This document shows, one piece after another, positions 13,987 through 55,234 of a stretch of 64,000 nucleotides of DNA (the first letter of the stretch is position 1; the number at the start of each line of letters is the position of its first letter). This DNA comes from Oscillospiraceae bacterium. Its GTDB lineage: Bacteria; Bacillota; Clostridia; Oscillospirales; Acutalibacteraceae. Under the pieces are notes generated by a model. That model saw only the letters and a list, made by a program, of their open reading frames with translations, searched no databases and was not told the DNA's origin. The stretch spans positions 1 to 64,000 of the forward strand of contig CACYHA010000005.1 in assembly GCA_902774035.1 (NCBI GenBank), read 5' to 3'. A program made the translations under genes and the position numbers.

Positions 13987-14129
13987 CGCGCAGCTTCGCT
14001 GCGCGAGGGGCGGCGGCGGGATGCCTCGTGCGGATGCACGAGGCGTCCCTGTGCGCGAAAGCGCACAGGGACGGCGCAGCCCGGGCTGCGCCGTCCCGCC
14101 GCCGCGGTTCGCACGGCGCAGCCGTGCGA
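13987..14129 (+). repeat. multi-hairpin intergenic element, copy A
   Basis: Five helices in a row. Entry hairpin CGCGCAGC-TTC-GCTGCGCG (13987-14005). Closing stem CGGCGGCGGG (14011-14020) with CCCGCCGCCG (14095-14104). Inside it are GCCTCGTGC-GGAT-GCACGAGGC (14023-14044), a 12-base-pair stem with a GAAA loop (14045-14072) and a perfect palindrome of GGCGCAGCCC type (14073-14092). Exit hairpin TCGCACGGC with GCCGTGCGA (14109-14129). It fills the 346-base gap between convergent thrS and the esterase gene, between their terminators. Confidence 0.85.
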
Positions 14130-14130
14130 G

Positions 14131-14163
14131 AAAAAAGGCGTGCTGTTTCTTTTCCAACACGCC
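14131..14163 (-). terminator. terminator of the carboxylesterase gene
   Basis: Minus strand: GGCGTG and CACGCC arms (14137-14163), then six T (14131-14136). Confidence 0.75.
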
Positions 14164-14174
14164 GTCGTTGTTTG

Positions 14175-15971
14175 TCAGGGGTCCTGTGCTTTTCTCTTTT
14201 TGCACCGAAATACCCGAACCGTCAGGCATACGAGCAGCACGGCGGCAAGCAGCGCCGCAAGGAACAGACCCGCAAGCTTGAACACATGGGGCACAAAGAG
14301 CGAAAGCTGGGAATAGCAGCCGTTGAAATAATGGCCGAGCAGCGGCGAGAGCAGTTCCCGCGCTTCTTTGCCGAGATCCTCCCGTGTTTCGACCGTTTCG
14401 CCGAGAACAAGGGTGCTGCGGGACCCTGCCGTGTAGGGCTTCCACACGAGGCTTTCGGTACGGGGATTGCCGGTGCGGGCGAACGCCACCCAAAGGGTCT
14501 GAACGGTCTCGGCGAGGGCGGGATCCACATGGCCGCCGGTGTAGATTGTCTCGTCTAGATTGTCAAATACATAGGCCAGCTCCATGGCGTGGCAGGCGCC
14601 CACGGTTTCATCCGCGCCGGGATAGGTGAAAAGATAGTTGTAGACCCGGCCGCCGTTCCGGGCGTGCAGCTCCGCCTGGCGCAAAGCCGGCAAGCGAAAC
14701 AGCAGCTCCGTGTAAAGCGCGCTCACGTTCCAGACGCGCCTGTCATTCTGCAGCGCCAAAAAGCGATCCACCGCGTTGCGCTCCGCTTCGGAAAGCCGCG
14801 ACATATTGTTTTCCAGCATGACCTCCATGCCGTGCCTGTAGATCGTCAGCCCGTCCAGAAGATCGGTATAGTAGCCCATCTCATAGATCCAGTAGCGCAC
14901 CTCGTCGGCATTGGTGCCGAGCATCAGATCCAGCCCGGCTGTTGCGCCGGCAGCATAGGCGGCGTAGGGATCCTCCGGCAGCACAACGCCGTCGCGCTCG
15001 GGAAAGTTGTTGTAATCGTTCAGCTTCTCGTTGACTTCCCGCAGCCGCTCCTCGCTGAGAGCCGTCAGCTCCGCCATAGTGGAACAGCCGGTCTCCTTCA
15101 GCAAAAGCTCCGTCAAAAGGCGGCACTCCTCTTTGCTGTAGGTCAGGTTCACACTGCCGCTTTCGGCGATCACGCGCCGGAACAGACCTTGCGTTCCCCG
15201 AACCAGCGGCAAAAGCGACACACTGCCGCCGCCCGCAGATTCGCCGAAGATGGTGACGTTCTCCGGGTCGCCGCCGAAGGCAGCGATGTTCCTTTGCACC
15301 CACTGCAGGGCGCAGACCTGGTCGAGCAGGCCGAGGTTGCCGCTTTCCCGGTAGTCTTCGCCGCCGGGCACCGCGGAAAAATCAATGAAGCCGAAGAGTC
15401 CGAGACGGTATTCCACGGTGACGAGGATCACGTCGCCGAACTTTTTGATCAGATTGTGTCCGTCGTAGAGCGGATCGCTGACCGCGCCCCAGCCGTAGGA
15501 GCCGCCGTGAAAGAAGACCATGACCGGCTTGTTTTCCGAATCGTCGCCGGGATTCGACCAGACGTTCAGCGTCAGGCAGTCCTCGCTTTGGGGATAATAG
15601 GAGCCGACCTCGGAGGGCCATTCCGACTGGATCGGCGAAGGGCCGAAGTAAAAGGCCTCGCGTACCGTGTCGCTGTCCGGCGCGGGCACCGGCGGTTTCC
15701 AGCGCAGCGAACCGGTCGGCGCTTTCGCGTAGGGAATCCCTTTGTGGGCGAGCACGCCGTCCTCCAGCCGGCCGACAAACACGCCGCTCCTGCAATCGAC
15801 CGCGAGAGCGGCGTCATAGCCTTCCGTAATGACGCGGTTTTCGCCGTACTGCGCCCGAAGCCGTTCCTTCACCGAATCTTCGCCGCCCGCCGCGCAGGCC
15901 GAAAACGAAAAAAGGCAGAGCAAAAAAGCAAAAGACAGCGCCAGGATCCGGGTCGGTCGGCGTTTCATCAT
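14175..15971 (-). CDS. membrane-anchored type B carboxylesterase
   Basis: 598 residues. An N-terminal hydrophobic stretch ends in FSFSAC, a plausible lipobox (Cys about 23), and a C-terminal membrane segment (about 565-588, then RCKKRK) gives a second anchor; the catalytic domain would be outside. Type B esterase marks: GIPYAKAPTGSLRWKPP, EDCLTLNVW, FFHGGSYGWG (oxyanion hole) and FGESAGGGSV with nucleophile Ser about 245. It should hydrolyse carboxylic esters; the substrate is unknown. The start at 15971 (MMKRRPT) has AAAGGGGG upstream; the longer reading adds 30 unlikely residues. A relative with different anchors is at 56083. Confidence 0.88.
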   Translation of the reverse strand: MMKRRPTRILALSFAFLLCLFSFSACAAGGEDSVKERLRAQYGENRVITEGYDAALAVDCRSGVFVGRLEDGVLAHKGIPYAKAPTGSLRWKPPVPAPDSDTVREAFYFGPSPIQSEWPSEVGSYYPQSEDCLTLNVWSNPGDDSENKPVMVFFHGGSYGWGAVSDPLYDGHNLIKKFGDVILVTVEYRLGLFGFIDFSAVPGGEDYRESGNLGLLDQVCALQWVQRNIAAFGGDPENVTIFGESAGGGSVSLLPLVRGTQGLFRRVIAESGSVNLTYSKEECRLLTELLLKETGCSTMAELTALSEERLREVNEKLNDYNNFPERDGVVLPEDPYAAYAAGATAGLDLMLGTNADEVRYWIYEMGYYTDLLDGLTIYRHGMEVMLENNMSRLSEAERNAVDRFLALQNDRRVWNVSALYTELLFRLPALRQAELHARNGGRVYNYLFTYPGADETVGACHAMELAYVFDNLDETIYTGGHVDPALAETVQTLWVAFARTGNPRTESLVWKPYTAGSRSTLVLGETVETREDLGKEARELLSPLLGHYFNGCYSQLSLFVPHVFKLAGLFLAALLAAVLLVCLTVRVFRCKKRKAQDP

Positions 15972-16035
15972 CTTGAAACCCCCTTTCGTTTTACTCCCGA
16001 ATGGTGTCGCTGCCATTATGCTTTCTCCGCTTTGT

Positions 16036-17163
16036 TTACTGTTCGCTGCCCTGCAGTGCATCCAGCGATTGCTTTTTGAGATAGGCGTTGATGAAGCCGT
16101 CCAGGTCGCCGTCCATCACGGCGTTGATGTTGCCGACCTCAAAGCCCGTGCGGTGATCCTTTGCAAGGGTGTAGGGCATGAAGACGTAGGAACGGATCTG
16201 GCTGCCCCAGCCGATCTCCTTCTGGTCGCCCTTGATGTCTTCGATCTTGTCGAGGTGCTCGCGCTCCTTGATCTCGATCAGCTTGGATTTGAGCATTCGC
16301 ATACAGACCTCGCGGTTCTGATGCTGGCTGCGCTCCACCTGACAGGACACGACGATGCCCGTGGGGATGTGGATCAGACGCACTGCGGACGAGGTCTTGT
16401 TGACTTTCTGGCCGCCGGCACCGGACGCACGGTAGACCTCCATTTTGATGTCTTCGGGCTTGATCTCGACCTCGATGGTGTCGTCGATCTCGGGCATGAC
16501 CTCCAGCGAAGCGAAGGAGGTGTGGCGGCGGCCCGAGGAATCGAAGGGCGACACACGCACCAGACGGTGGACGCCCATTTCGCTCTTGAGGTAGCCGTAA
16601 GCGTTTTCGCCCTCGATCACCACGACCGCAGATTTCAAGCCGGCTTCGTCGCCGTCCAGAAAGTCCACCGTCGTGAACTTGTAGCCGTGCTTGGTTGCCC
16701 ACTGGTTATACATGCGGTAGAGCATCTGACACCAGTCCTGCGCCTCGGTTCCGCCCGCGCCGGCATGGAAGGTCAAAATCGCGTTCAGATTGTCGTATTC
16801 GCCCGAAAGCAAAGTGGCAAGCGTCTGCTTTTCCAGCTCGCGCTCCACAGCCTCCACGCTTTCGCGGCAATCGTCGAGCAAGTCGAGATCGCCCTCCTCG
16901 TCGGAGAGTTCGATCATCACCAGCGCGTCGTCAAAAGCGGTCTTCAGGTCGTTATAGGATTTGATTTTGTTTTTGAGCATGGAGATGCGCTGCAGCACCT
17001 TTTGCGACGCGGCAAGGTCTCCCCAAAAGGCCTCGTCGGTCGTTTTTGCTTCCAGCGTTTCCACTTCCTGTTGCATCTCGGTCAGGCCGACGGCAGAGGC
17101 AAGCTCCTGCAGCGGCTTTTCGCTTTCCAGTAAACGCAAACGTAATTCTTCAAATTGGATCAT
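16036..17163 (-). CDS. prfB: peptide chain release factor 2
   Basis: 375 residues. It recognises UGA/UAA stop codons: the SPF tripeptide is in RVSPFDSSGR, and GGQ, which reaches the peptidyl transferase centre, is in ASGAGGQKVNK. One continuous frame starts at the ATG at 17163 (MIQFEELRL); the in-frame stop and +1 programmed frameshift found near codon 25 in many bacteria are absent, so RF2 autoregulation by frameshifting is not expected. A GAAAGGAAC ribosome site precedes the start, and the longer reading would overlap the promoter. Monocistronic. Confidence 0.95.
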   Translation of the reverse strand: MIQFEELRLRLLESEKPLQELASAVGLTEMQQEVETLEAKTTDEAFWGDLAASQKVLQRISMLKNKIKSYNDLKTAFDDALVMIELSDEEGDLDLLDDCRESVEAVERELEKQTLATLLSGEYDNLNAILTFHAGAGGTEAQDWCQMLYRMYNQWATKHGYKFTTVDFLDGDEAGLKSAVVVIEGENAYGYLKSEMGVHRLVRVSPFDSSGRRHTSFASLEVMPEIDDTIEVEIKPEDIKMEVYRASGAGGQKVNKTSSAVRLIHIPTGIVVSCQVERSQHQNREVCMRMLKSKLIEIKEREHLDKIEDIKGDQKEIGWGSQIRSYVFMPYTLAKDHRTGFEVGNINAVMDGDLDGFINAYLKKQSLDALQGSEQ

Positions 17164-17205
17164 GGCAACGGGTTCCTTTCTGCCAAACATAAATATACAG
17201 GTTAT

Positions 17206-17233
17206 ATTATACACGATTATTTTGAATGTGCAA
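17206..17233 (-). promoter_or_regulatory. sigma-A promoter of prfB
   Basis: Minus strand: TTGCAC (17228-17233), 16-base spacer, TATAAT (17206-17211). Confidence 0.65.
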
Positions 17234-17283
17234 CATTTTTAAAATTATTTTCGCAAGAAATTACATAAAATAAAGAAAACGGA

Positions 17284-17311
17284 TTGCTTTTTTTCAGAAA
17301 AACGCTACAAT
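17284..17311 (+). promoter_or_regulatory. sigma-A promoter of the zinc-ribbon/DUF2628-galU operon
   Basis: TTGCTT (17284-17289), 16-base spacer, TACAAT (17306-17311), 29 bases before the start codon. Confidence 0.6.
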
Positions 17312-17340
17312 AGAAGAAAAGTGATCTGAAAGGATTTTTT

Positions 17341-18384
17341 ATGAAGTATCAAAACCAACTCTGCGGCGGCTGCGGCCTTCCGATGCGGGAAGGCGAAGAC
17401 ATCGTCGTTTGCCCCGACTGCGGCGCACCGCAGCACCGCGCCTGTTATGAAAAAGAAAACCGCTGCGTGTTTGCCGAACGGCACGCCGAAGGCTTTGTCT
17501 GGACGGCAAGCGGCGCACCCGCCGCGAAAAGCGAAACCTTCCCCTGCCCCGTCTGCGGCCACAAGAACGTCCCCGGCGCCGCCGAATGCGCGCGCTGCGG
17601 CCAGCCCTTCGCCCCGGAAGCGACGCAAGAGCCGATTCTGCCGCGCACGGAGATCCGCACGGAGCAACTGATCGACGAGCTGTTCTTTGACGCGCCGAAC
17701 GGCGAAGCGGAGCTCGAGCTCGACGAGAACGAACGCGAACAGGTGGAATTTGTGATCACACAGCGGTTGCTGCAGGCCACGCCCGGCATGACGGAAGAGC
17801 AGGCGCACGAACGCCTTTGCGGCCACCCGCTGCGCCAGGTCATGACCTTCCTTTCCGCCCGTGCGCTCACCTTTGTCAACAAATTCCGCAAGCTGGAAAA
17901 CGGCAGCGCTTTCACCTGGAACTGGGCGGCGTTCCTCTTCACACCCTACTGGTTCTTTTACCGCAAGCTCTACAAGCCCGGCATCGTGGTCATGACCGTG
18001 CGTATCTGCCTTGCGATCGCCGTATATCAGCCGATGAGCCGGATCAGCGAGCTGATGCTGACGCTCAACGAGGCCGTGCGCGCCGGCACGCTCACCGACG
18101 CGATGTATGCCGAAACGATGGAGCAGATCGGCGCCTTCGCCCCGATCATGGCGATCTCCATAGGCGTGCTGGTGCTTTTGGCCGTGCTGTCCGGCCTGCT
18201 GGCCGACCGGCTCTATCACCGCTATGTGCAGCAGACGCTTGACCGGCTCAAGCAGGAGGAGAGCCGCGACGCCTTTTTGGTGCATTTCCTGCGCAAAAGC
18301 GCCGTCAGTCCCCTGCTCGCCGCCCTGTCTTACGCTGCGGTCTCCGTCATTCCGAACCTGATCATGTCTTTCATTGCGCAATAG
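17341..18384 (+). CDS. RING-like/zinc-ribbon membrane protein with DUF2628
   Basis: 347 residues. Residues 8-40 form a RING-finger-like set of ligands (CGGCG...CPDCGAPQHRACY), and 63-83 are a zinc ribbon (CPVCG...CARCGQPF). The second half has the DUF2628 pattern: FTWNWAAFLFTPYWFFYRKLY (membrane-entry Trp/Phe-rich hairpin, about 193-213) and membrane segments near 218-236, 263-285 and 318-345. The family is of unknown role; the N-terminal fingers suggest protein binding at the membrane. It is followed by galU after 12 bases, with one promoter, so the two are co-transcribed. Confidence 0.75.
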   Translation: MKYQNQLCGGCGLPMREGEDIVVCPDCGAPQHRACYEKENRCVFAERHAEGFVWTASGAPAAKSETFPCPVCGHKNVPGAAECARCGQPFAPEATQEPILPRTEIRTEQLIDELFFDAPNGEAELELDENEREQVEFVITQRLLQATPGMTEEQAHERLCGHPLRQVMTFLSARALTFVNKFRKLENGSAFTWNWAAFLFTPYWFFYRKLYKPGIVVMTVRICLAIAVYQPMSRISELMLTLNEAVRAGTLTDAMYAETMEQIGAFAPIMAISIGVLVLLAVLSGLLADRLYHRYVQQTLDRLKQEESRDAFLVHFLRKSAVSPLLAALSYAAVSVIPNLIMSFIAQ

Positions 18385-18396
18385 GAGGGGTTTTCC

Positions 18397-19278
18397 GTGA
18401 AAGTCAAAAAAGCGATCATTCCCGCCGCCGGCCTCGGCACCCGCGTTTTGCCGGCATCCAAATCCATCCCGAAGGAGATGCTCAACATCGTGGATCGCCC
18501 CGCGATCCAGTACATTGTCGAGGAGGCTGTCGCCGCCGGGATCGAGGATATCCTCATCATCACGAACCGCGGCAAGGGCGCCATTGAGGACCACTTTGAC
18601 CACGCCTTTGAGCTGGAGGCCAATCTCAAAAACGCCCCCGGCAAGGAAAAAATCTATGAAGACGTGGTCGCCCCGGCCAACATGGCAAACATCTACTTCC
18701 TGCGCCAGAAGGTAACAAAGGGCCTCGCCCACGCCATCCTCTGCGCCAAGAGCTTCATCGGGGACGAACCCTTCGCCATTCTTTACGGCGACGACGTGAC
18801 GGTCAACCCCGGGGGCAAGCCCGTGATCGGTCAGCTCTGCGACTGCTTCGAACAGTACGGCAAGGGCATCGTCGGCGTGAAGGAAGTGCCGCGCAAGGAT
18901 GTCAGCAAATACTGCTCGCTGGATATCACACCGGTAAAGGACAAGCTGATGGACGTCCACAACATCATTGAAAAGCCGACGGAGGATCAGATCATCTCCT
19001 GCTATTCCATTCTCGGCCGCGTGGTCATGCCGCCGGAGATCTTCGAGATCATCGCCCGCACGCCGGAGGACCCGAAGGCACGCGAGGTCTACTTCACCGA
19101 TTCCATGACGATCCTCGCAAAGGAACGCGGCTTGCAGGCGCTCGACTTTGAAGGCACCCGCTTCGACATGGGCAACAAGTTCGGCATCATGCAGGCAAAC
19201 TGCGAAGTGGCCCTGCGCCACGACGAGATCGGCGAACAGTTCCGCGCGTACATCAAAGAATTGGCAAAGACGCTGTAA
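18397..19278 (+). CDS. galU: UTP-glucose-1-phosphate uridylyltransferase
   Basis: 293 residues, full length. It makes UDP-glucose from UTP and glucose 1-phosphate for cell-surface glycans. The nucleotide loop is IPAAGLGTRVLPASKSIPKE (residues 8-27); VEEAVAAGIEDILIIT, ILYGDDV with the metal Asp, and FEGTRFDMGNKFG are family segments. The start is a GTG at 18397 with TAGGAGGGG 6-7 bases upstream. Second gene of the operon with the DUF2628 protein. Confidence 0.95.
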   Translation: MKVKKAIIPAAGLGTRVLPASKSIPKEMLNIVDRPAIQYIVEEAVAAGIEDILIITNRGKGAIEDHFDHAFELEANLKNAPGKEKIYEDVVAPANMANIYFLRQKVTKGLAHAILCAKSFIGDEPFAILYGDDVTVNPGGKPVIGQLCDCFEQYGKGIVGVKEVPRKDVSKYCSLDITPVKDKLMDVHNIIEKPTEDQIISCYSILGRVVMPPEIFEIIARTPEDPKAREVYFTDSMTILAKERGLQALDFEGTRFDMGNKFGIMQANCEVALRHDEIGEQFRAYIKELAKTL

Positions 19279-19292
19279 ATAGATATAGCATA

Positions 19293-19335
19293 AGCACCCT
19301 GCCGAAGAACCGGCGGGGTGCTGTTCGTTTTCAGG
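19293..19335 (+). terminator. terminator of galU
   Basis: AGCACCCTGCCG (19293-19304) pairs with CGGCGGGGTGCT (19311-19322), then GTTCGTTTTC. Confidence 0.7.
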
Positions 19336-19343
19336 GCTTATTT

Positions 19344-20342: not shown

Positions 20343-20359
20343 CCCTTTCGTTTTTTTCT

Positions 20360-20388
20360 ATCATACCACAGCTTGCCGCATTTGGCAA
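20360..20388 (-). promoter_or_regulatory. sigma-A promoter of the epimerase gene
   Basis: Minus strand: TTGCCA (20383-20388), 17-base spacer, TATGAT (20360-20365). Confidence 0.65.
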
Positions 20389-20414
20389 CAGCTCAAAGAT
20401 TTTTTAATAAAAGC

Positions 20415-20444
20415 GCACAAAAACGCCGCGGAAAACCGCGGCGT
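20415..20444 (-). terminator. terminator of gap
   Basis: Minus strand: ACGCCGCGG and CCGCGGCGT arms around TTTT (20423-20444), then TTTTGTG. Confidence 0.8.
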
Positions 20445-20462
20445 GCTACGTTTGTCTGGTTC

Positions 20463-21497
20463 TTACAGCTCTGCGAAGTATTTGATGGTGCGGACCATCT
20501 GAGAGGTGTAGGAGTTCTCGTTGTCATACCAGGAGACGACCTGAACTTCATAGAGACCATTACCGAGGTCGATGACCATGGTCTGGGTCGCATCGAACAG
20601 GGAACCGTACTTCATGCCGATGACGTCGGAAGAGACGATGGGATCTTCGTTGTAGCCGAAGGATTCGCTCGCGGCAGCCTTCATGGCGGCGTTGATGCCT
20701 TCCTTGGTCACGTTTTCACCCTTGACAACAGCGGTCAGGATCGTGGTGGAGCCGGTGGGCACGGGCACGCGCTGAGCGGAGCCGATGAGTTTGCCGTTCA
20801 GCTCGGGAATGACAAGGCCGATCGCCTTGGCAGCGCCGGTGGAGTTGGGAACGATGTTCGCAGCGCCGGCACGGGCTCTTCTAAGGTCGCCCTTTCTGTG
20901 CGGGCCGTCCAGGATCATCTGATCGCCGGTGTAGGCATGGATGGTGCTCATGATGCCGCTCTGGATGGCAGCGTAATCGTTGAGGGCCTTCGCCATGGGC
21001 GCCAGGCAGTTCGTGGTGCAGGAAGCAGCGGAGATGATCTGATCGTCAGCGGTCAGAGTGTCGTTATTCACGCTGTAAACGATGGTCTTGAGGTCGTTGC
21101 CTGCCGGCGCGGAAATGACAACTTTCTTTGCGCCCGCGTTGATGTGCGCCATGCTCTTTTCCTTGGAGCAATAGAAACCGGTGCACTCCAGAACAACGTC
21201 CACGCCGATCTCGCCCCAGGGCAGCTCGGCAGCGTTGGCCTTCGCATAGATGGTGAGCACTTTGCCGTCCACGGTGATGGTGCCGTTTTCGTCGTCTGCG
21301 GTCACGGTGTGCAGATCTTCGCCGATCTTGCCGCAGTAGCCGCCCTGTGCGGTGTCATACTTGAGCAGGTGGGCAAGCATGGAAGGTTTGGTAAGATCGT
21401 TGATGGCAACGACTTCGTAACCTTCTGCGCCGAACATCTGACGGAACGCAAGACGACCGATACGGCCAAAACCGTTGATTGCAACTTTCACTGACAT
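20463..21497 (-). CDS. gap: glyceraldehyde-3-phosphate dehydrogenase, type I
   Basis: 344 residues. It oxidises glyceraldehyde 3-phosphate to 1,3-bisphosphoglycerate with NAD in glycolysis. [13 protein letters not shown] (residues 8-20) is the NAD loop, [12 protein letters not shown] (about 155-166) carries the catalytic Cys, and VPVPTGSTT and [15 protein letters not shown] are family signatures. GGAGGTATC lies 8 bases before the ATG. Monocistronic with its own promoter and terminator; no pgk or cggR is adjacent, unlike in many Firmicutes. Confidence 0.97.
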
Positions 21498-21543
21498 AAG
21501 AGATACCTCCGAAAAATGTTTTTTGAAAATAAATTTCGTGTAT

Positions 21544-21572
21544 ATATTAGCCTAAAATCTCTTTTTTTTCAA
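21544..21572 (-). promoter_or_regulatory. sigma-A promoter of gap
   Basis: Minus strand: TTGAAA (21567-21572), 17-base spacer, TAATAT (21544-21549); leader of about 40 bases. Confidence 0.6.
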
Positions 21573-23732: not shown

Positions 23733-23770
23733 AGAAAAACCGTCTTTGTTTTTCACCGTGCGCACGAGAA

Positions 23771-23888
23771 GCGCGGCGAAACGCGGCGGCGGAAGGCTGT
23801 GCGCTGCGCGCACAGCCGAAAAGGGCGGGCCCGCCCTTTTCGCGCGCGGCCTTCGGCCGCGCGCTTCCGCCGCCGCGTTTTGCCGCGC
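23771..23888. repeat. multi-hairpin intergenic element, copy B
   Basis: Outer stem GCGCGGC (23771-23777) with GCCGCGC (23882-23888). Closing stem of 14 pairs, CGCGGCGGCGGAAG (23782-23795) with 23864-23877. Inside are three hairpins: GGCTGTGCGC-TGC-GCGCACAGCC (23795-23817), a 24-base palindrome with a GGGCCC centre (23818-23841), and GCGCGCGGCC-TTC-GGCCGCGCGC (23842-23864). It occupies the 310-base gap between the two-component promoter and the tsf terminator. It lacks the entry hairpin seen in copies A, C and D. Confidence 0.8.
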
Positions 23889-23920
23889 AGAAAGGAGACA
23901 TGTTTCTAAGGCCGCGCGAT

Positions 23921-27810: not shown

Positions 27811-28665
27811 ATGGAACACAGCTTTGTGCTTCTGGCCGGGGACGCGCGTCTGCGCGCGCTGCTGCATTTGCTGGAGGAAAAGGGAATATCCGCCCTGCAT
27901 TTGACCGCCTGCCGCTCCCCTGCCGCGCTGGAAGCGGCGGTCGCGATCGCGAAGACGCTGGTGCTGCCCGTTCCGATGAGCCGCGACGGCGTTCATCTTT
28001 GCAGCAGCGGCGAGGAATGCATCCTGCTGGAGGATGTGCTCGGTGCGCTGCGGCCGGGGCAGGAAGTGTTCGGCGGCGCCATTTCCGCAGACCAAAAGGC
28101 GAAGATCGAAGCCCGGGGCGCAAAGGCGGTCGATTTTTTACGGGATGCGCCTTTCGTTTTGAAAAACGCCGCGTTCACGGCGCAGGGTGCGCTGCGTCTG
28201 CTGCTGGAGCATCTGAATGTGCCGCTGCAGGGGCTGCCGGTGCTCGTTACGGGCTACGGCCGCGTCGGAAAAGCGGCGGGAACGCTGCTGCGTTCGGTCG
28301 GCTGCCGCGTGAGCGTTGCCGCACGCAGCGAGGTTCAGCGCACCGAAGCGGCGCTCTCCGGCTGCGCGGCGATCACGCTCGACGCGATGCCCGCGATTTT
28401 GCCGCGGACGGCAGCCATCCTCAACACGGCGCCCGCGCCCCTCTTCGACGCGGGGACACTGCGGCGCTGCCAAAAGGACGCGCTCTATCTGGAGCTTGCC
28501 TCCGCCCCCTTCGGCGCGCAGGAAACCGAGGTTCGCGCCGCCGGGCTGCACTACGTTTTCGGCGGAGGGCTGCCCGGAAGGTTTTGCGCGGCCGGGTGCG
28601 CAGACGCGATGCTGCAGGTGATGAAGGGGAAGTGCCCGCTGCTTTCCCCGATGTGTGAAACCTGA
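27811..28665 (+). CDS. dpaA: dipicolinate synthase subunit A
   Basis: 284 residues. With DpaB it makes dipicolinic acid from the lysine-pathway dihydrodipicolinate in the mother cell for storage in the spore core. The N-terminal DpaA domain (1-130) is followed by a Rossmann fold with VTGYGRVGKAAGTLL (about 146-160) and the pattern AAFTAQGALRLLLEH. GAAGGAGGGG precedes the ATG at 27811; the longer reading overlaps the promoter. Followed by dpaB after 123 bases without a visible gene. Confidence 0.9.
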   Translation: MEHSFVLLAGDARLRALLHLLEEKGISALHLTACRSPAALEAAVAIAKTLVLPVPMSRDGVHLCSSGEECILLEDVLGALRPGQEVFGGAISADQKAKIEARGAKAVDFLRDAPFVLKNAAFTAQGALRLLLEHLNVPLQGLPVLVTGYGRVGKAAGTLLRSVGCRVSVAARSEVQRTEAALSGCAAITLDAMPAILPRTAAILNTAPAPLFDAGTLRRCQKDALYLELASAPFGAQETEVRAAGLHYVFGGGLPGRFCAAGCADAMLQVMKGKCPLLSPMCET

Positions 28666-28788
28666 CGGCTTTCAAGAGATTTCTGTGCAAAATGGCGGAA
28701 AACTGCCGACAGGATTTGCGCATCCGAGTGAATCGGCGGGTACACAACGGCTGAAAAAGCCGGCACCGCAGCAAAAGGAGGTGATCTC

Positions 28789-31172: not shown

Positions 31173-31182
31173 CCGAAGAACC

Positions 31183-31320
31183 GCGCACGGCAGAGCCGCG
31201 CGCAAGGCGGCGGCGGAACGAACCGTGCGAACGCACGGTTCAAAAACGAAGCACGCTTCGTTTTTCGCGCGGCCCGGGCCGCGCGGTTCCGCCGCCGCCC
31301 CTCGCGCAGCGAAGCTGCGC
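31183..31320 (-). repeat. multi-hairpin intergenic element, copy C (reverse orientation)
   Basis: Read on the minus strand: entry hairpin GCGCAGC-TTC-GCTGCGC (31304-31320), closing stem of 14 pairs GGCGGCGGCGGAAC type (31206-31219 with 31286-31299), three inner hairpins (31266-31285 perfect 20-base palindrome; 31242-31265; 31220-31241) and exit hairpin (31183-31203, one mismatch). It fills the gap between convergent genes and touches the T-run of the lysozyme-gene terminator. Confidence 0.85.
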
Positions 31321-31355
31321 AAAAAAGCCCGCCGGGATTTAAAATCCCTGCGGGC
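31321..31355 (-). terminator. terminator of the secreted lysozyme-like gene
   Basis: Minus strand: a GCCCGC-GGGATT stem (31327-31355) and then six T (31321-31326), directly next to element copy C. Confidence 0.85.
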
Positions 31356-48687: not shown

Positions 48688-48690
48688 AAA

Positions 48691-48744
48691 GAAAAGAATC
48701 ACCGTCTTGCAGGCGTTTCTGCGAGACGGTGATTTTTCTTTTCT
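48691..48744. terminator. bidirectional terminator between the phosphoesterase gene and ddl
   Basis: AATCACCGTCT (48697-48707) pairs with AGACGGTGATT (48724-48734), with A-rich sequence before and a T-rich run after, so it serves both convergent genes. Confidence 0.85.
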
Positions 48745-48745
48745 T

Positions 48746-49990
48746 TTATCTCTTTGCGCCCTTCGCACCCTTTGCGCCGCCGAAGGACACGCCCTGCAGC
48801 ACGTTGGAATCGAAGGCGTAGGTGATGTCTTCGTTTTCGCGCTCGCGTTTGAGCGCAAGGGCAAGCATCTCGTTGATGAGCTTTTCATACGGCAGGCCGA
48901 TCGGCTCCCAGAGATAGAACGAGAGCGAACCGGGAATGGTGTTGATCTCGTTGAGCCAGATCTCGCCGGATTTTGTATCCATCATGAAGTCGATGCGCGA
49001 CACGCCGGAGCAGCCCAGACACCGGAAGGCGTCCACCGCCATGGTCCGGATCTTCTGCTTCTGTTCGGGCGTGATGTCGGCAGGGATCTTGCGCTTGAGC
49101 GAGGCCATGCCCTTGCTGCCGCCGCCCTTTGCGCCCTTCGCGCCGCCTTTGGCTCCTTTGGCGCCCTTTGCGCCGCCGCTGCCGTCGCCGATGTATTTGT
49201 CCTTGAAGGACAAAATCTCGTCGGCGTTGACCGGCTCCTCGCATTCCGAGGCGCGGGCGCTCTCGTAATCGCCGAGGACAGCGCAGTTGATCTCCTTGAG
49301 GTTCTGCACCGCCATCTCCACAAGCACCTTCTGCGCGTAGCAAAACGCGGTGTCGAGGGCTTCAAAGAGCTTTGCGCGGTCGCCTGCCTTGCTGATACCG
49401 ATGGACGAGCCGAGATTCACGGGCTTCACGATCACCGGGTAGCCGATGCGCTGCTCGATCTCGTTCACCACAGCCTCGCTGTCGCGGTCATAGTCCTTTG
49501 CCGTGTAGCACTTGCAGTCGAGCACGGGGATGCCGTTGTCCTTGAGCACGGTCTTCATCACATATTTGTCCATCCCGACGGCGGACGAAAGCACGTCGCA
49601 GCCGACATAGGGGATGTTCAGCATCTTCAGGTAGCCCTGCAGCGTGCCGTCCTCCACATTTGTGCCGTGAACGATCGGAAATGCGATGTCGATGTAATCC
49701 ATATAGCTCTTGCGCATGGACTTGAACGGGAATTTGAAGATCTTGACGCGCTTTTCGTCGTTGATGAGAAAGACGCGCTGGCTGATCTTCAGCAGCCGGT
49801 CGAGGTCTGTATAGTTTTCGATCTGGCCGATCTCATAGCCGGTATAGAACTTGTTGTCCTTGGTGACATAGATGGGGATGACGTCGTATTTTTTTGCGTC
49901 GATGCTCTGGATTGCCTGAATGGCGGAGATGATGGAGATCTCGTGCTCCACGCTTTGGCCGCCGAAAATGACGCCGACTTTGATCTTCAT
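48746..49990 (-). CDS. ddl: D-alanine-D-alanine ligase with Gly-Ala-Lys inserts
   Basis: 414 residues; usual length is 300-380. It joins two D-Ala with ATP. GVIFGGQSVEHEISIISA (residues 6-23), HGTNVEDGTLQGYL (about 109-122), KPVNLGSSIGISKA and the C-terminal EINTIPGSLSFYLWE are conserved. In the omega-loop region, after FKDKYIGDGS, there is a low-complexity insert of repeated GAK/GGAK units before KGMASLKRKIPADI, and the C-terminus ends in a similar GGAKGAKGAKR. A D-Ala-D-Ser or D-Lac specificity cannot be excluded. Gene order hydrolase-murF-ddl suggests one operon; 15 bases separate it from murF. Confidence 0.92.
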   Translation of the reverse strand: MKIKVGVIFGGQSVEHEISIISAIQAIQSIDAKKYDVIPIYVTKDNKFYTGYEIGQIENYTDLDRLLKISQRVFLINDEKRVKIFKFPFKSMRKSYMDYIDIAFPIVHGTNVEDGTLQGYLKMLNIPYVGCDVLSSAVGMDKYVMKTVLKDNGIPVLDCKCYTAKDYDRDSEAVVNEIEQRIGYPVIVKPVNLGSSIGISKAGDRAKLFEALDTAFCYAQKVLVEMAVQNLKEINCAVLGDYESARASECEEPVNADEILSFKDKYIGDGSGGAKGAKGAKGGAKGAKGGGSKGMASLKRKIPADITPEQKQKIRTMAVDAFRCLGCSGVSRIDFMMDTKSGEIWLNEINTIPGSLSFYLWEPIGLPYEKLINEMLALALKRERENEDITYAFDSNVLQGVSFGGAKGAKGAKR

Positions 49991-50005
49991 TGCAGTCCCC
50001 TCCTC

Positions 50006-51577
50006 TTAATAGTTGTCGGGCAGGTCGTTTTCCAGAAGAATGACCTTCTTTTTGTCGCCCGTGTTCAGCGCATAGACGCGCGTGAGCGCTTCCTCGATGG
50101 AATCCGCAACGAAGATCTTCGCCTCGTCGAAGCCCGCGTCCAGCAGACCCGCCTTGATCGGCACGGCCTGCCGCTGGCCGACCAGCGCAACGAAGTCGCA
50201 GACCGCGGCGGCGTTCGCGCCGAACTCACGGTTCAGCGTCTCCTGCTGCTCGCCGAGCTCGACCATGCCGGGCGTGACAAGGATCCGGTAGCCGTCAAAC
50301 AGGGCGAAGGTCTCCAGCGCGGCCTTTGTGCCGCTGGGGTTGGAGTTGTAGGCGTCGTCGATGATCGTCGCGCCGTTCTTTTCGCTGAGCTCCAGGCGGT
50401 GCGGCACGCCCTCCAGCTTGCGCACCTGCCCCTTCAGGTCGCGCAGCGGGATGCCGAGCTTGTTGCTGACGGCGATGGCGCCGGTGATGTTCAGCACATT
50501 GTGGCGGCCGAGCAGCCGGGTGGAAAAGCGTTCGCTTTCGCCGTTCGGCGCGGTCACGGTGAACGCCGTGCCCCGGTCGGAGACCGAAACGTCGGTTGCG
50601 ACATAGTCGCCCTCGCCGCTGAGAGAATAGGCGATGAAGGGACGTTCGCAGCCGTGCTCGCGGATGTTTTCGTCGTCGCCGTTGAGAAAGAGCATCCCGT
50701 CCGCCGGCAGAGCGTCCGCCAGCTCAAACTTTGTTTTTTTCACCGCATCCAGCGTTTTGAAGGACTCCAGATGCTGGGGGCCGATGGAGGTGATGACGCC
50801 GTGCTGCGGATGTACGATGTTGCACAGCTCCTTGATGTCGCCGACCCACTTTGCGCCCATTTCGCAGATGAAGATCTCGTGGGTGGCGCGCAGCGAGCCG
50901 CGGATGGTTTTGACCACGCCCATCGGGGTATTGTAGCTTTCCGGCGTCATGAGTACATTGAATTTTGCGCGCAAAAGGGTGTTCAGAAAGTATTTTACGC
51001 TCGTTTTGCCGTAGCTGCCGGTGATGCCGATGATTGTCAGATTGTCGCAGGCGGCAAGCAGGCGTTTCGCGTCGCGGGTATAGTAGGCGTTGACGGAAAG
51101 CTCCACGGGCTTGTTGATGAGATTCGCCAGCAGCACCATGAACTCGCTGATGAAATAGAGACCCAGCAGGAAGATCAGAGCGATCGTCTCGTGGTGGTCC
51201 GGAATGAAGACCGCGGCGGAGACGATGATGACAGCCGCCGTGAGCACGGCGATCGTGACGAACATACGCTTGACGCGCGGCGTATAGACCAGCGGCTTTT
51301 TGCCCTTGCGCGGCCACTCAAACGGAATGGCAATGAGCAGCAGCAAAAAGCAGAGGAACAGTTTGATGTTCACATTGAACGGGATCAGCGCGATGACGAG
51401 CATCAGAACCGCCATCATATTGTGCGGCAAAAAGCGGCCGAAATTCTGGCGCAGCCATTTGAAGTGCGTGTCAAAGCGATAGGAGTTGAGCTGGAAAAAG
51501 TGCATGGAGTCCAGAATGGATAGCATATAGACCACGCCGAAGGTGATGACACACAGCAGATAAAGCGAAAACGTCAT
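50006..51577 (-). CDS. murF: membrane-tethered MurF-type UDP-MurNAc-tripeptide D-Ala-D-Ala ligase
   Basis: 523 residues. About 165 N-terminal residues hold four to five membrane segments (about 2-21, 54-72, 72-88, 107-128 and 134-154), absent from classical MurF. The Mur ligase core follows: GITGSYGKTSVKYFL (P-loop, about 184-198), EMGAKWVGDIKEL, LLGRHNVLNITGAIAV and DDAYNSNPSGTKAAL. The MGA and DAYNSNP motifs point to MurF, and ddl next door makes its dipeptide substrate. The anchor would place the step at the membrane, close to MraY. It starts 13 bases after the hydrolase stop. Confidence 0.9.
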   Translation of the reverse strand: MTFSLYLLCVITFGVVYMLSILDSMHFFQLNSYRFDTHFKWLRQNFGRFLPHNMMAVLMLVIALIPFNVNIKLFLCFLLLLIAIPFEWPRKGKKPLVYTPRVKRMFVTIAVLTAAVIIVSAAVFIPDHHETIALIFLLGLYFISEFMVLLANLINKPVELSVNAYYTRDAKRLLAACDNLTIIGITGSYGKTSVKYFLNTLLRAKFNVLMTPESYNTPMGVVKTIRGSLRATHEIFICEMGAKWVGDIKELCNIVHPQHGVITSIGPQHLESFKTLDAVKKTKFELADALPADGMLFLNGDDENIREHGCERPFIAYSLSGEGDYVATDVSVSDRGTAFTVTAPNGESERFSTRLLGRHNVLNITGAIAVSNKLGIPLRDLKGQVRKLEGVPHRLELSEKNGATIIDDAYNSNPSGTKAALETFALFDGYRILVTPGMVELGEQQETLNREFGANAAAVCDFVALVGQRQAVPIKAGLLDAGFDEAKIFVADSIEEALTRVYALNTGDKKKVILLENDLPDNY

Positions 51578-51590
51578 AAAGCTTTCCCCC

Positions 51591-52358
51591 TCACGAAATG
51601 TTCATGAACGAAGCGATCACGCGCAAAAAGCGCTGCGGCTGTTCCAAAAACGAAAAGTGACCGGCGCCCTCAAAGGTGACAAGCGCGCTTTCCGGCATCA
51701 GCTTTTCCATCGTCTGTCCGTCGGAGAGCGGCGTGGCGGTGTCGGCTGTGCCCCAGATCAGCAGCGCGGGACATTTCACGCACGGCATCAGGTCGCACAG
51801 ATCCTCGTTGACCACCTTGACCAGCGTTTCACGCATCACCGGCGAGGCGGCGTTGTAATCCGCCGAACCGTTGCGGCGGCGCATGGACTCCATCAGATGC
51901 GGAAAGACCTTTTCCATTTTATCCTTGGAGACCACGTGCTTGACGGCGCTGTAGACGCCCTCCTTGGCGCGGCGCAGCGCCGTTTTTTCGGGCTTGACCC
52001 CGGCGGAATCCACAAGGATGACCTTTTCCACCGTGAACGGCAGCGCGCGCGCACACAGCTTGATGATGACGCGGCCGCCGAAGGAATGGCCCAGCAGGGT
52101 GATGCTGTCAAATTCGTAGTCCTTCAAAAAGTCCAGGACAAAATCCACATAGGCGTCCACGTCCCAGGCCTCGGGCGGCTCCTGACTCTGTCCGTGGCCG
52201 GGCAGGTCGAGCGCGAGGACCCTGTATTTTTGAGAGAGCAGCGCGATCGTATCGGCAAACAGGTCGATGTTTGCGCCCCAGCCGTGCAGCAGCAGAACAA
52301 GCTCACCCTCACCCTCGCAGATATAATTGATTCTCAGACCGTTGAGTTCTTTTGTCAA
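51591..52358 (-). CDS. alpha/beta hydrolase upstream of murF-ddl
   Basis: 255 residues, cytoplasmic. LLLHGWGANIDLF (about 21-33) is the oxyanion loop, LDLPGHGQS follows, GHSFGGRV (nucleophile Ser 92) is the elbow, and the acid and base lie in WGTADTATP and GAGHFSFLEQP. It resembles general haloperoxidase/esterase-type hydrolases. The start is TTG at 52358 with CAGGGGGAA upstream. As first gene of an operon with murF and ddl it may act on a wall-related ester or amide, which is inference from context only. Confidence 0.87.
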   Translation of the reverse strand: MTKELNGLRINYICEGEGELVLLLHGWGANIDLFADTIALLSQKYRVLALDLPGHGQSQEPPEAWDVDAYVDFVLDFLKDYEFDSITLLGHSFGGRVIIKLCARALPFTVEKVILVDSAGVKPEKTALRRAKEGVYSAVKHVVSKDKMEKVFPHLMESMRRRNGSADYNAASPVMRETLVKVVNEDLCDLMPCVKCPALLIWGTADTATPLSDGQTMEKLMPESALVTFEGAGHFSFLEQPQRFLRVIASFMNIS

Positions 52359-52412
52359 GAAAGGTTCCCCCTGAAATTAGATTTTCACTGATATTTACGC
52401 ATAACTATGTGT

Positions 52413-52441
52413 AGTATAGCACATACTGAAAATAATTTCCA
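52413..52441 (-). promoter_or_regulatory. promoter of the hydrolase-murF-ddl operon and adjacent inverted repeat
   Basis: Minus strand: TGGAAA (52436-52441), 17-base spacer, TATACT (52413-52418). TATGTG/CACATA arms spaced by 8 bases overlap the -10 and could be an operator. Confidence 0.5.
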
Positions 52442-52495
52442 CCACATTGGAACAATTTTTCAAAAAACAACCTATTTTTTTCAGGAGGTACCCCT

Positions 52496-53032
52496 ATGGA
52501 ACTCAGAGGAAGCAAAACCGAACTTCATCTGCTCGCCGCCTTTGCCGGAGAATGTCAGGCCAGAAGCAAGTATGATTTTTTTGCGGAAAAGGCGAAGCAG
52601 GACGGCTATGAGGAGATTTCCGGCATTTTCAAAAAGACGGCCGACAACGAAAAAGAGCACGCCGCGCTCTGGTGGCGGCTGCTTTCCGGCGGCGCGGGCG
52701 AAACGAAGGACAATTTGCAGAACGCCTGCGGCGGCGAACACCACGAATGGACCAAAATGTATCCCGAATTCGCCGGTGACGCCCGGGACGAGGGCTTTGA
52801 GAGCATCGCGGTGCTGTTTGAGGAGGCCGCGCGGGTGGAGCAGAGCCACGAGGCGCGGTTCCAGGCGCTGTTCGACGCCCTGGAAGCGCAGCAGGTGTTT
52901 TCCAGGCCGCAGGCCGAAACCTGGGTCTGCACGAGCTGCGGCCACGAGCACTACGGCAACGAGGCGCCGTCCGTCTGCCCGCTTTGCGGAAAAGCGCAGG
53001 CGTATTTTGCGATCAAAGTCGTGAATCAGTAG
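52496..53032 (+). CDS. rubrerythrin
   Basis: 178 residues. The ferritin-like di-iron domain (1-140) has the ligands in AAFAGECQARSKYDFFA, DNEKEHA, and EEAARVEQSHEARF. A rubredoxin-like domain closes the chain (CTSCGHEHYG...CPLCGKAQAYF). It reduces hydrogen peroxide with electrons from NAD(P)H in anaerobes. TCAGGAGG lies before the ATG. The order of domains is normal. The upstream region is shared with the divergent hydrolase operon; no strong plus-strand promoter could be fixed. No PerR box was recognised. Confidence 0.95.
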   Translation: MELRGSKTELHLLAAFAGECQARSKYDFFAEKAKQDGYEEISGIFKKTADNEKEHAALWWRLLSGGAGETKDNLQNACGGEHHEWTKMYPEFAGDARDEGFESIAVLFEEAARVEQSHEARFQALFDALEAQQVFSRPQAETWVCTSCGHEHYGNEAPSVCPLCGKAQAYFAIKVVNQ

Positions 53033-53142
53033 TCGGCGGCCGGCATTCATTTTCCCCCACCTCATCCACCGCAAGCGGTCCCCCTTCTCCGCCGGCGGGG
53101 AAAGCTCCGGCGGTTTCCATTCATTTTTATAAAAAAGCGAAC

Positions 53143-53185
53143 GTGCAAAGCCCTCTCCGGCGCCAACGGGCGGCTGAGGAGGGCT
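53143..53185 (+). terminator. hairpin after rubrerythrin
   Basis: AAGCCCTC and GAGGGCTT arms enclose a GGCGCC-rich loop, followed by a pyrimidine run. Another GC hairpin-rich stretch (CCGC-AAGC-GGTC and CGCCGGCGGGG) lies at 53065-53110. Both resemble the dispersed intergenic hairpins common in Ruminococcaceae-type genomes. Confidence 0.5.
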
Positions 53186-53244
53186 TCCTTCTTTCGTGCG
53201 AACGGTTGTTGCACTTTTCACAAAAAACAGGAAGAGAATTGTAC

Positions 53245-53273
53245 TTGCAAAGCGGCGAAAAACGTAGTATAAT
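53245..53273 (+). promoter_or_regulatory. sigma-A promoter of the secreted hydrolase-like gene
   Basis: TTGCAA (53245-53250), 17-base spacer, TATAAT (53268-53273). Confidence 0.7.
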
Positions 53274-53326
53274 AATTATATTAAAATGTATTAATGTTTC
53301 ATGAAACCGAAAAGGAGTACATAATC

Positions 53327-54916
53327 ATGAAGAAACTGTCAAAAGTCCTGGCGCTGCTGCTGAGCGCGCTGGTGCTGCTTTCCCTTGTGACACCGACGTT
53401 TGCCGAAGAACGCTCCGGCCGCAATGTCCCGAATATCCACATCCGCGGCATGGCGGGTGACATCGTCAACGCTGAAGGCGAAGAGATCGACAACCGCGCC
53501 TTCCCCGAAGGCGGCCTCGCGGGCATGGTCAAAGACTGTATGCCCTCGTTTTTGAACGCGCTGAAGGAGGACACCGACGAAGCGTGGGACGCTTACCGCG
53601 CAAAGCTGTTCCCGGCAGTGAAAGGCTGCTTCGGCCCCATGTGGCTCGACAAGAACGGCGAAGCCTCCGACGGCTCCTATCAGCGTTTCAACTGGCGGCG
53701 CGAACCCGTGACCGACAACCGCGGCCCGGACGGCTACGGCTTTGACAGCTATCCGATGGTCTGCGACTGGCGGCTCGATCCCTTTGTCAACGCCGACGAA
53801 CTGAACGACTACATTCAGGAGATCAAGCGCGTGACCGGCAGCGACAAGGTCAACATCGACGCCCGCTGCGAGGGCGCGAACATTCTTGCGGCCTATCTTG
53901 CGAAATACGGCTATGAAGATCTGCACTGCATCCAGTTCTATTCCCCCACCCTTTACGGCGCCGAGCTTGCGGACGGCCTGTTCAGCGGCAACATCCACAT
54001 TGACGGCGACGCGCTGGCGCGCTACAAGGACGTCAAATTCAAAATCGAAGACGAGTTGACGAATGAACTGGTGAACGCCATTCTGGAGTTCGCAGGCGAC
54101 ACCCTGCTGCTGGACGTCACGGCCTTTTCTCTGGATCTTCTGTTCATGAAGCTCTATGGCGAAGTCATCGCGCCGCTGGTGCGCGAGACCTACGGCACAT
54201 TTCCGGGCTTCTGGGCCATGGTGTCGAAAAAGAACTACTCCGCCGCGCGCAAAGGCATCTTCAAGGGCTGTGAGGACGAATATGCCGGTCTGATCGAAAA
54301 AGTCGAACACTACAACAAAGACGTGCGCCAGCATCTGGACGAACTGCTTCTCGGCGCAAAGAAAGCGGGCGTTCCGGTCGCCGTGTTCTGCTATTACGGC
54401 GACTATCAGGTTCCGCCGATCACCGAAAACGCCAATGAGCTCAGCGACAACACCATCATTCTCAAGAACACCTCTCTCGGCGCGACCACGGCGAAATACG
54501 GAAAAACGCTTTCTGCCAAACAACTCAAAAAAGCAGCGGAAAACGGCACAGACAAATATATCTCCCCGGACAAGATGGTGGACGCCTCCACCTGTCTGTT
54601 CCCCGACACGACATGGTTCATCTGGGATTGCCCGCACGAGCTCTTCCCGGATTACATCTTTGACCGGCTGGCGGAATTCTATTATGCCGACGGAGACATG
54701 ACCGTGTTCAGCAATCCCGATTTCCCGCAATACCTGATCGCGCATACCGATCCGGAGGATTCCGACGTCGGCTATCTGGAACCGATGACGGACGAAAACG
54801 CCCCGACGATCAACGCGCCGTCGCGCAACATCCGCACCGTGGACTGGAAGGATATGATCTTCCGTCTGCTGAAAGCGATCTGGGCGTTCTTCACAAACTG
54901 GCTGAAAAACCGGTAA
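53327..54916 (+). CDS. secreted LCAT/PGAP1-like alpha/beta-hydrolase-fold protein with Cys at the nucleophile elbow
   Basis: 529 residues with a signal peptide (about 1-25, TPTFAEE). YDWRLDP-type sequence (VCDWRLDPFVNADELNDYI, about 143-161) then KVNIDARCEGANILAAYLAKYG look like the strand-elbow-helix of LCAT/PGAP1-type lipases. The GxSxG Ser is replaced by Cys 181 (RCEG). A late His 437 in DCPHELFPDYIF fits the base of a triad. The C-terminus has an amphipathic aromatic helix (MIFRLLKAIWAFFTNWL). Fold assignment is by pattern and moderately sure; activity is not. GGAG lies before the ATG at 53327. Monocistronic. Confidence 0.65.
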   Translation: MKKLSKVLALLLSALVLLSLVTPTFAEERSGRNVPNIHIRGMAGDIVNAEGEEIDNRAFPEGGLAGMVKDCMPSFLNALKEDTDEAWDAYRAKLFPAVKGCFGPMWLDKNGEASDGSYQRFNWRREPVTDNRGPDGYGFDSYPMVCDWRLDPFVNADELNDYIQEIKRVTGSDKVNIDARCEGANILAAYLAKYGYEDLHCIQFYSPTLYGAELADGLFSGNIHIDGDALARYKDVKFKIEDELTNELVNAILEFAGDTLLLDVTAFSLDLLFMKLYGEVIAPLVRETYGTFPGFWAMVSKKNYSAARKGIFKGCEDEYAGLIEKVEHYNKDVRQHLDELLLGAKKAGVPVAVFCYYGDYQVPPITENANELSDNTIILKNTSLGATTAKYGKTLSAKQLKKAAENGTDKYISPDKMVDASTCLFPDTTWFIWDCPHELFPDYIFDRLAEFYYADGDMTVFSNPDFPQYLIAHTDPEDSDVGYLEPMTDENAPTINAPSRNIRTVDWKDMIFRLLKAIWAFFTNWLKNR

Positions 54917-55020
54917 ACCATTCGCGGGCAGATCCGTCAAGCGCAGCAAGGGCCGGAGAACCGGCTCGCTTGCGGAGCTGAAAGTCCCAGCATTTCAAGC
55001 AACCAAAACAACAGCGAAAA

Positions 55021-55066
55021 GGACGCTTTCCGGGGGATCTCTCGGAAAGTGTCCCTTTTTGTTTTT
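55021..55066 (+). terminator. terminator of the secreted hydrolase-like gene
   Basis: GGACGCTTTCC (55021-55031) pairs with GGAAAGTGTCC (55044-55054), then a T-run. A second hairpin, TTTTTGAAA/TTTCAAAAA, follows at 55062-55085. Confidence 0.8.
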
Positions 55067-55094
55067 GAAAGACACTTTTCAAAAAGCTCTTTTC

Positions 55095-55234
55095 GCGCAG
55101 CCTTCGCTGCGCCGAGGGCGGCGGCGGGCTCCCTCGTGCAGCCGCACGAGGGAGCTGTGCGCGAAAGCGCACAGCGCCGCGCGGCCGGGGCTGCGCGGGC
55201 CCGCCGCCGCGTTTCGCACGGCGCAGCCGTGCGA
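55095..55234 (+). repeat. multi-hairpin intergenic element, copy D
   Basis: Entry hairpin GCGCAGC-CTTC-GCTGCGC (55095-55112). Closing stem of 12 pairs, GCGGCGGCGGGC (55118-55129) with 55199-55210. Inside: CTCCCTCGTGC-AGCC-GCACGAGGGAG (55129-55154), GCTGTGCGC-GAAA-GCGCACAGC (55154-55175) and CCGCGCGGCC with GGCTGCGCGG (55177-55198, one G-U). Exit hairpin TCGCACGGC with GCCGTGCGA (55214-55234). It fills most of the 478-base gap between tandem genes, after a terminator. Confidence 0.85.

What the first reader, a model, noticed from the sequence alone, without database searches (positions are those of the whole stretch)
13987..55234. Four copies of a multi-hairpin junction element with changing stem sequence but kept pairing
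Copies at 13987-14129, 23771-23888, 31183-31320 (reversed) and 55095-55234. Each has a 10-14 pair closing stem of GGCGGCGG/CCGCCGCC type around three hairpins; A, C and D add an entry hairpin GCGCAGC/GCTGCGC and an exit hairpin. Inner hairpins share little sequence between copies, yet nearly every base pairs, including a G-U in copy D and GAAA loops in A and D. That is the signature of selection or copying for structure. All lie between genes and next to terminators. Possible roles: RNA stability or processing element, small RNA, site for a nucleoid or transposase-like protein, or a selfish palindrome family spread by an unseen IS200-like/RAYT enzyme. I know of no named family with this layout.
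Basis: partly seen in the sequence, partly recalled or inferred. Interest (0 to 1): 0.75.

Follow-up and report, generated by a model that had tools for sequence, protein, structure and literature searches.

The report
Shape-conserved four-way-junction DNA repeats
A rumen gut bacterium carries at least 75 copies of a small non-coding DNA repeat that would fold into a near-perfect four-armed cloverleaf, and related species carry elements of the same shape with unrelated letters, which looks like a spreading DNA element kept by its shape rather than by its sequence.

Summary
The four copies are real. They belong to a family with at least 75 places in this genome: 74 from a covariance model and one from a sequence-free scanner. 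The core is a GC-rich stem enclosing three hairpins; 60 of 89 scanned cores have no unpaired base at the junction.

Covariation is extreme: 98.0% of 5066 cells pair, all 40 core pairs vary on both sides, with 1527 two-sided against 25 one-sided cells. A generalised model found same-shaped elements of unrelated sequence elsewhere in the genus (9 of 34 genomes score). No other genus scored, under strict filters. Between close relatives some sites are empty and others hold a differently spelled element. Copies favour gene 3' ends beside terminators.

G-U pairs are rare in the scanned set, changes come two-sided, hairpins differ as whole modules, and the inner block can be inverted. I favour a small selfish DNA repeat whose pairing is renewed by template switching over a selected RNA. 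No RAYT link was found; the mobilising enzyme is unknown.

The parts
13987..14005 (+). copy A, 5' outer hairpin (GCGCAGC type)
   Evidence: perfect 8-bp hairpin
14010..14105 (+). copy A, four-way-junction core
   Evidence: scanner, no unpaired base at the junction; R1 match 13983-14130
14109..14129 (+). copy A, 3' outer hairpin (GCACGGC type)
   Evidence: perfect 9-bp hairpin
23771..23888 (+). copy B, core with 24-pair closing stem, no outer hairpins
   Evidence: scanner; R1 match 23750-23920
31185..31201 (-). copy C, outer hairpin (GCACGGC type, one mismatch to the pattern)
31206..31299 (-). copy C, core
   Evidence: scanner, no unpaired base at the junction; R1 match 31180-31323
31304..31320 (-). 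copy C, outer hairpin (GCGCAGC type)
55095..55112 (+). copy D, 5' outer hairpin
   Evidence: read from sequence
55118..55210 (+). copy D, core (one unpaired base at the junction)
   Evidence: scanner; R1 match 55090-55235
55214..55234 (+). copy D, 3' outer hairpin
   Evidence: perfect 9-bp hairpin
20343..20463 (.). empty site: the matching gap in relative G018 holds an element just after the terminator and is 145 nt longer

Best explanation
A non-coding interspersed DNA repeat of about 90-150 nt defined by shape: a closing stem of mostly 11-14 bp encloses three hairpins (about 9, 10-12 and 8 bp, loops of 3-4 nt), usually with one hairpin on each side. SHOWN: many copies, patchy spread among relatives, empty and filled versions of matching sites, enrichment at gene 3' ends beside terminators, near-perfect pairing with mostly two-sided changes, differently spelled elements at matching sites, copies with the inner block inverted relative to the outer hairpins, and same-shaped elements of unrelated sequence in other species of the genus. 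INFERRED: it spreads as selfish DNA by an unidentified route and is tolerated in 3' gaps. The single strand folds at replication; template switching between arms makes them perfect again in one step (hence two-sided changes and few G-U) and can flip the spacer, while exchange between copies swaps hairpin modules. The shape persists while the letters drift.
For: At least 75 places in G000. Patchy among relatives: R1 in G018 and at 4 weak places of G002, none in the 36 other genomes, plus G041. Empty against filled sites with flanks 85-95% identical; copy C's site is empty in G041. 98.0% of 5066 cells paired; 1527 two-sided, 25 one-sided (the second my sum). In four registered pairs of copies at matching sites, 38 two-sided and 2 one-sided changes. 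G-U 23 of 3700 MFE pairs, 13 of 3694 on the other strand. Inner block inverted in 10 of 47 classifiable G000 copies; counting only copies with both outer hairpins typed, 5 against 24. Loops of 3-4 nt in 258 of 267 hairpins; inverted-loop excess in H1 and H2 of G000 (P 0.0075 and 0.039, uncorrected). A copy truncated in G018 (C60) whose counterpart is intact in G041. Unrelated-sequence junctions in G002, G040, G046, G008 and G004. Template switching is reported to homogenise inverted-repeat arms and invert spacers (passages of PMC8604942 and PMC8794818).
Against: No target-site duplication, excision product or mobilising enzyme was found. Loop inversion was not significant in the other seven of nine hairpin sets, and outer loops strongly prefer one orientation. 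17 of 74 R1 places fall outside the scanner set; their folds have 61 G-U of 997 pairs (6.1%), by eye mostly in long irregular H2 tips and flanks. The scanner allows few mismatches, so its low mismatch rate is partly built in. Two-sided changes are also what selection on structure leaves, and some were whole-hairpin replacements. Three matching sites hold intact but differently spelled elements (copy A in G041, copy C and G000:C2:17817 in G018), and genes beside far elements have homologues beside G000/G018/G041 elements more often than control genes (5 of 27 against 26 of 573, P 0.009): both could mean a kept function.
Confidence: 0.5

Rival explanations
1. A structured RNA (3'-UTR stabiliser, processing element or small RNA) selected for a four-way-junction fold.
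For: Strong covariation; 88 of 116 flanking gene ends in G000 are 3' ends (my count); very stable folds on both strands; intact elements with other letters at three matching sites.
Against: G-U 0.4-0.6% in the scanned set against 4 of 104 pairs in four RNAs of G000 and G002 (a small yardstick, P 0.006); loops vary between copies; sites empty in close relatives; no Rfam match.
Confidence: 0.2
2. A cruciform or Holliday-junction-like DNA site bound by a host protein (HU, RuvA, resolvase; names recalled) for nucleoid order or insulation of convergent genes.
For: 60 of 89 cores are linker-free four-way junctions; 33 of 58 G000 copies lie between convergent genes.
Against: Patchy presence among close relatives and a truncated copy argue against an essential host site; no binding data.
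Confidence: 0.14
3. A REP/REPIN-like family moved by a RAYT/IS200-type Y1 transposase.
For: Palindromic, intergenic, multicopy; a Y1 gene that looks RAYT-like to the eye is in G000.
Against: Tag at 2 of 149 outer hairpins; no junction in the fetched loci of the two G000 Y1 matches (L029, L030, 2-3 kb each); Y1 genes spread over carriers and non-carriers.
Confidence: 0.08
4. A MITE of a conventional DNA transposon whose autonomous copy is in the unassembled part; the junction is its interior.
For: G018/G041 copies have repeated outer inverted flanks; a 616-nt length difference at G041:C41:78008 against G018.
Against: No target duplication seen; flanks differ between copies and species while the junction stays; no partner identified (only Y1_Tnp was searched).
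Confidence: 0.08

Closest known systems
REP / BIME / REPIN (GTAG-tagged, RAYT-associated)
   Same: short palindromes, many copies, intergenic, mostly after gene 3' ends
   Different: REPs are 20-40 bp palindromes with a GTAG tag and often G-T pairs in stems (PMC3733652, abstract and passages); here a junction of four helices, no tag, few G-U
Mitochondrial double-hairpin and repetitive hairpin-forming elements
   Same: hairpin elements whose counts differ between close species; for Allomyces mobility was inferred without flanking duplications (passages of PMC2800124)
   Different: organelles against a bacterium; two hairpins against three hairpins in a closing stem; Paquin et al. 2000 itself was not read
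MITEs and BOX/RUP-type bacterial small repeats
   Same: non-coding interspersed units, some with inverted flanks
   Different: no target duplication or partner transposase shown; between species the shape is kept, not the sequence (BOX/RUP seen only in the listing)
attC sites of integrons (recalled, not looked up)
   Same: folded single strands recognised by shape with variable sequence
   Different: no cassette array or IntI was looked for

Membership tests
REP/REPIN | GTAG (or CGTC) tetranucleotide at the hairpin foot | tested here: not met
   2 of 149 outer hairpins within 6 nt of a foot
REP/REPIN | RAYT gene flanked by the repeat | tested here: not met
   loci L029 and L030 of the two G000 Y1_Tnp matches were scanned and gave no junction; Y1 matches in 21 of 34 genomes, no link with carriage; genomes incomplete
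REP/REPIN | high copy number, extragenic | tested here: met
   at least 75 places; 6 of 58 overlap an ORF called by a simple gene finder
MITE | terminal inverted repeats | tested here: inconclusive
   repeated inverted flanks in G018/G041, short T/A tracts in G000
MITE | target-site duplication | tested here: inconclusive
   filled/empty pairs found, but gaps too diverged to read a duplication
MITE | autonomous transposase with the same ends | not tested
   only Y1_Tnp was searched genome-wide
Structured RNA family | covariation above controls | tested here: met
   0 of 500 shuffles reach any measure; slid structures 34-49% paired against 98.0%; rows are related and both strands are counted
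Structured RNA family | G-U pairs tolerated on the functional strand | tested here: not met
   23 of 3700 and 13 of 3694 MFE pairs on the two strands; scanner set G-U 10, A-C 4, other 15 of 3719; but 61 of 997 in the 17 places outside it
Structured RNA family | match to a curated Rfam family | tested here: not met
   no element matched at gathering threshold in the window and 14 loci
Structured RNA family | expressed transcript | not testable with these tools
   no RNA-seq held
Intrinsic terminator | hairpin followed by a U tract | tested here: not met
   T runs face the element from outside (53 of 116 sides in G000 against 79 of 558 at control points), so by position they belong to neighbouring terminators

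The most novel reading that the evidence does not exclude
A shape-only genetic element: across one bacterial genus the same four-way junction persists and multiplies while its sequence is replaced completely, even at matching sites, because what copies, repairs or recognises it reads the folded strand and not the letters; template switching supplies instant perfect stems.
Probability: 0.33. Interest if true: 0.85.

Novelty: new variant of a known kind. Interest (0 to 1): 0.62.

Why it matters
Covariation is usually read as evidence of RNA function. Here a bacterial repeat shows very strong covariation with few of the G-U intermediates expected from RNA selection, so it is a natural test case for how far DNA template switching alone can create and keep 'conserved structure'. 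If shape alone lets an element spread, that would be an unusual rule of recognition for a bacterial mobile repeat.

Tried and rejected
Rejected: chance palindromes (0 junctions in 5 resamplings); solitary outer hairpins as an independent REP family (in the window they occur only beside cores); phage or plasmid carriage (no match for copy A in plasmids or phages; 0 in viral contigs by pattern); a small coding gene in the repeated flanks of G018/G041 (open frames exist in several frames, none stood out); a Y1 transposase link. Ten-pair comparison: three pairs in register gave 28 two-sided and 1 one-sided change (in C23:23387/G041:C9:13849 only one flank matched; in C6:130602/G018:C3:124126 eight are one replaced hairpin); three were unchanged (for one of these the site match rests on repeats only); four were out of register and left out, one of which shows a T-A to T-G difference. 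A fourth registered pair (C2:17817) gave 10 and 1. One weak scanner hit (G000:C2:36030) was dropped before counting; a stricter rescan gave the 89 elements. Wider searches with R3 (295 order genomes; 41 family genomes) found only G000, but stricter filters apply there and missed G008, which had scored, so absence outside the genus is not proven. A further 69 kb of G002 gave no junction. Literature: eight full-text searches listed no description of this architecture that I recognised; I saw listings and passages only, and subscription papers are not held.

Full report
CHECK OF THE OBSERVATION. A scanner that knows no sequence, only 'stem enclosing three adjacent hairpins', returned exactly these four from 64 kb and nothing from five resamplings. 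blastn with copy A and flanks gave 60 matching pieces in the genome. A covariance model from 12 copies (R1) gave 117 matches on both strands (150 of 4919 candidates scored), which merge into 74 distinct places; the scanner set has 58 elements, 57 of them among these and one more.

ANATOMY. In the scanner set of 89 elements (58 in the window's genome G000, 13 in G041, 12 in G018, 6 in G002) 60 junctions have no unpaired base. In G000 the closing stem is mostly GGCGGCGG(CGG)RAC; H1 is often GCCTCGTGC or GAACCGTGC; H2 varies most and has long tips in many of the 17 places that the scanner missed; H3 is often CGCGCAGC or CGCGCGGC. Loops are 3 or 4 nt in 258 of 267 hairpins. An outer hairpin is found on 92 of 116 sides in G000. 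In 10 of 47 classifiable G000 copies the inner block is inverted relative to the outer hairpins; with both outer hairpins typed, 5 against 24. G046 shows the same kind of inversion in a family of unrelated sequence (loci L194, L203, by eye).

COVARIATION AND WHAT KIND. In alignment A6 (130 rows, both strands of most elements, rows related) 98.0% of 5066 cells pair against 63.5% when shuffled and 34-49% when slid; all 40 pairs change on both sides; two-sided cells 1527, one-sided 25, unpaired 103 (the last two are my sums over its table). Cells are not events, and the alignment was fitted to the structure. Independent of it, the scanner set has 29 mismatched cells of 3719: G-U 10, A-C 4, other 15. 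MFE folds with RNA energies, which allow G-U freely, have 23 G-U of 3700 pairs on one strand and 13 of 3694 on the other; four RNAs of G000 and G002 have 4 of 104. Against this, the 17 R1 places outside the scanner set have 61 of 997. Copies at matching sites differ by whole-pair changes: 38 two-sided and 2 one-sided in four registered pairs; three pairs were unchanged and four were not in register. Eight of the 38 are one replaced hairpin, so part of this is module exchange between copies.

RELATIVES. Besides G000, R1 finds the family in G018 and, weakly, in G002, out of 39 genomes searched including G000; G041 was added by a genus search with flanking DNA. A scan of 91 kb of G002, partly chosen around R1 hits, gave 6 junctions, with stems of other sequence; 100 kb each of G019, G016 and G008 gave none. 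Model R3 then scored 9 of 34 genus genomes. Scanner-confirmed junctions of unrelated sequence were seen in G040, G046, G008, G004 and G002; the G023 match (L196) shows a junction only in its MFE fold. Further samples gave one more in 80 kb of G046 and none in G040 (35 kb), G004 (43 kb), G039 (61 kb) and G002 (69 kb). Genes next to 15 far elements have homologues next to elements of G000, G018 or G041 in 5 of 27 cases against 26 of 573 control genes (P 0.009): suggestive of old shared sites, but one of the five is weak (48% identity) and one lies on the other side of its element.

SITES. Filled and empty versions exist at matching sites: an element in G018 (C16:4306) right after a terminator where the window (20343-20463) has only a terminator and, by eye, a promoter, 145 nt shorter; an element-bearing stretch in G041 (C41:78008) 616 nt longer than the G018 site. 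The site of copy A is empty in G018 and holds a differently spelled element in G041; the site of copy C is empty in G041 and holds a differently spelled element in G018; the G018 site of G000:C2:17817 holds one with a 29-pair closing stem. A copy at G018:C60 has lost its right closing arm while the G041 counterpart is whole. In G000, 33 of 58 elements lie between convergent genes, 22 between tandem, 3 between divergent; all gaps: 56 of 323 convergent, 218 tandem, 49 divergent; gaps of at least 150 nt: 37 of 112 convergent. G018: 5 convergent, 6 tandem, 1 at an edge; G041: 6, 5, and 2 divergent; G002: 5 and 1 (own simple gene finder; background gaps include element-bearing ones). T runs face the element on 53 of 116 sides in G000 against 79 of 558 at control points, terminator-like hairpins on 31 of 116 against 37 of 558; in the relatives T runs are on 7 of 24, 8 of 26 and 1 of 12 sides (G018, G041, G002).

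MECHANISM. Template switching between inverted-repeat arms is reported to homogenise arms and invert spacers (PMC8604942, abstract and passages) and to make multi-base compensatory changes in one step (PMC8794818, passages). That predicts what is seen: perfect stems, two-sided changes, rare G-U, inverted inner blocks. The loop-inversion test was positive in two of nine sets only. How copies reach new places is not shown, and a Y1 transposase is not linked. Spread as selfish DNA, with loss from promoters, is my inference from patchiness and location.

VERDICT. A real, unusually clean, shape-conserved repeat family; most likely selfish DNA kept at DNA level; RNA or cruciform function remains open. 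That weakens the argument from neutrality, so I lowered the best explanation from 0.55 to 0.50, raised the RNA rival from 0.17 to 0.20, the cruciform rival from 0.12 to 0.14 and the novel case from 0.30 to 0.33.

Noticed in passing
window 28659-28743: An 85-nt repeat with dozens of further matches in relatives G018 and G041; one lies by the right edge of the 616-nt difference at G041:C41:78008.
   Followed up: no
flanks of G000 elements at C7:27016, C9:41660, C27:1099, C21:2379, C10:11929; G002 locus L062: A second palindromic intergenic repeat (GGGGCTGTTGCATTTCGCGAAAAACGTCAAAGC...GAAAGCGCTTTC) adjoins several junction elements; a related end (GGGGCTGTTGCATTAAGCGC) is in G002.
   Followed up: partly
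L029:241-573 (G000:C16): Y1 transposase ORF, RAYT-like by eye, beside its own palindrome (GGGGGACGGTTCTCTGTC...) and an IS110-like transposase (also by eye).
   Followed up: partly
L100:563-632: Gut-1 RNA (RF01706) next to a tRNA in G002.
   Followed up: no
window 53058-53106 and 54545-54622: Short stretches that hit many places in relatives; the second lies inside a called gene and may be a protein repeat.
   Followed up: no
G002:C33:189720-190147: Two near-identical junction elements 340 nt apart with duplicated flanks: a local duplication.
   Followed up: no
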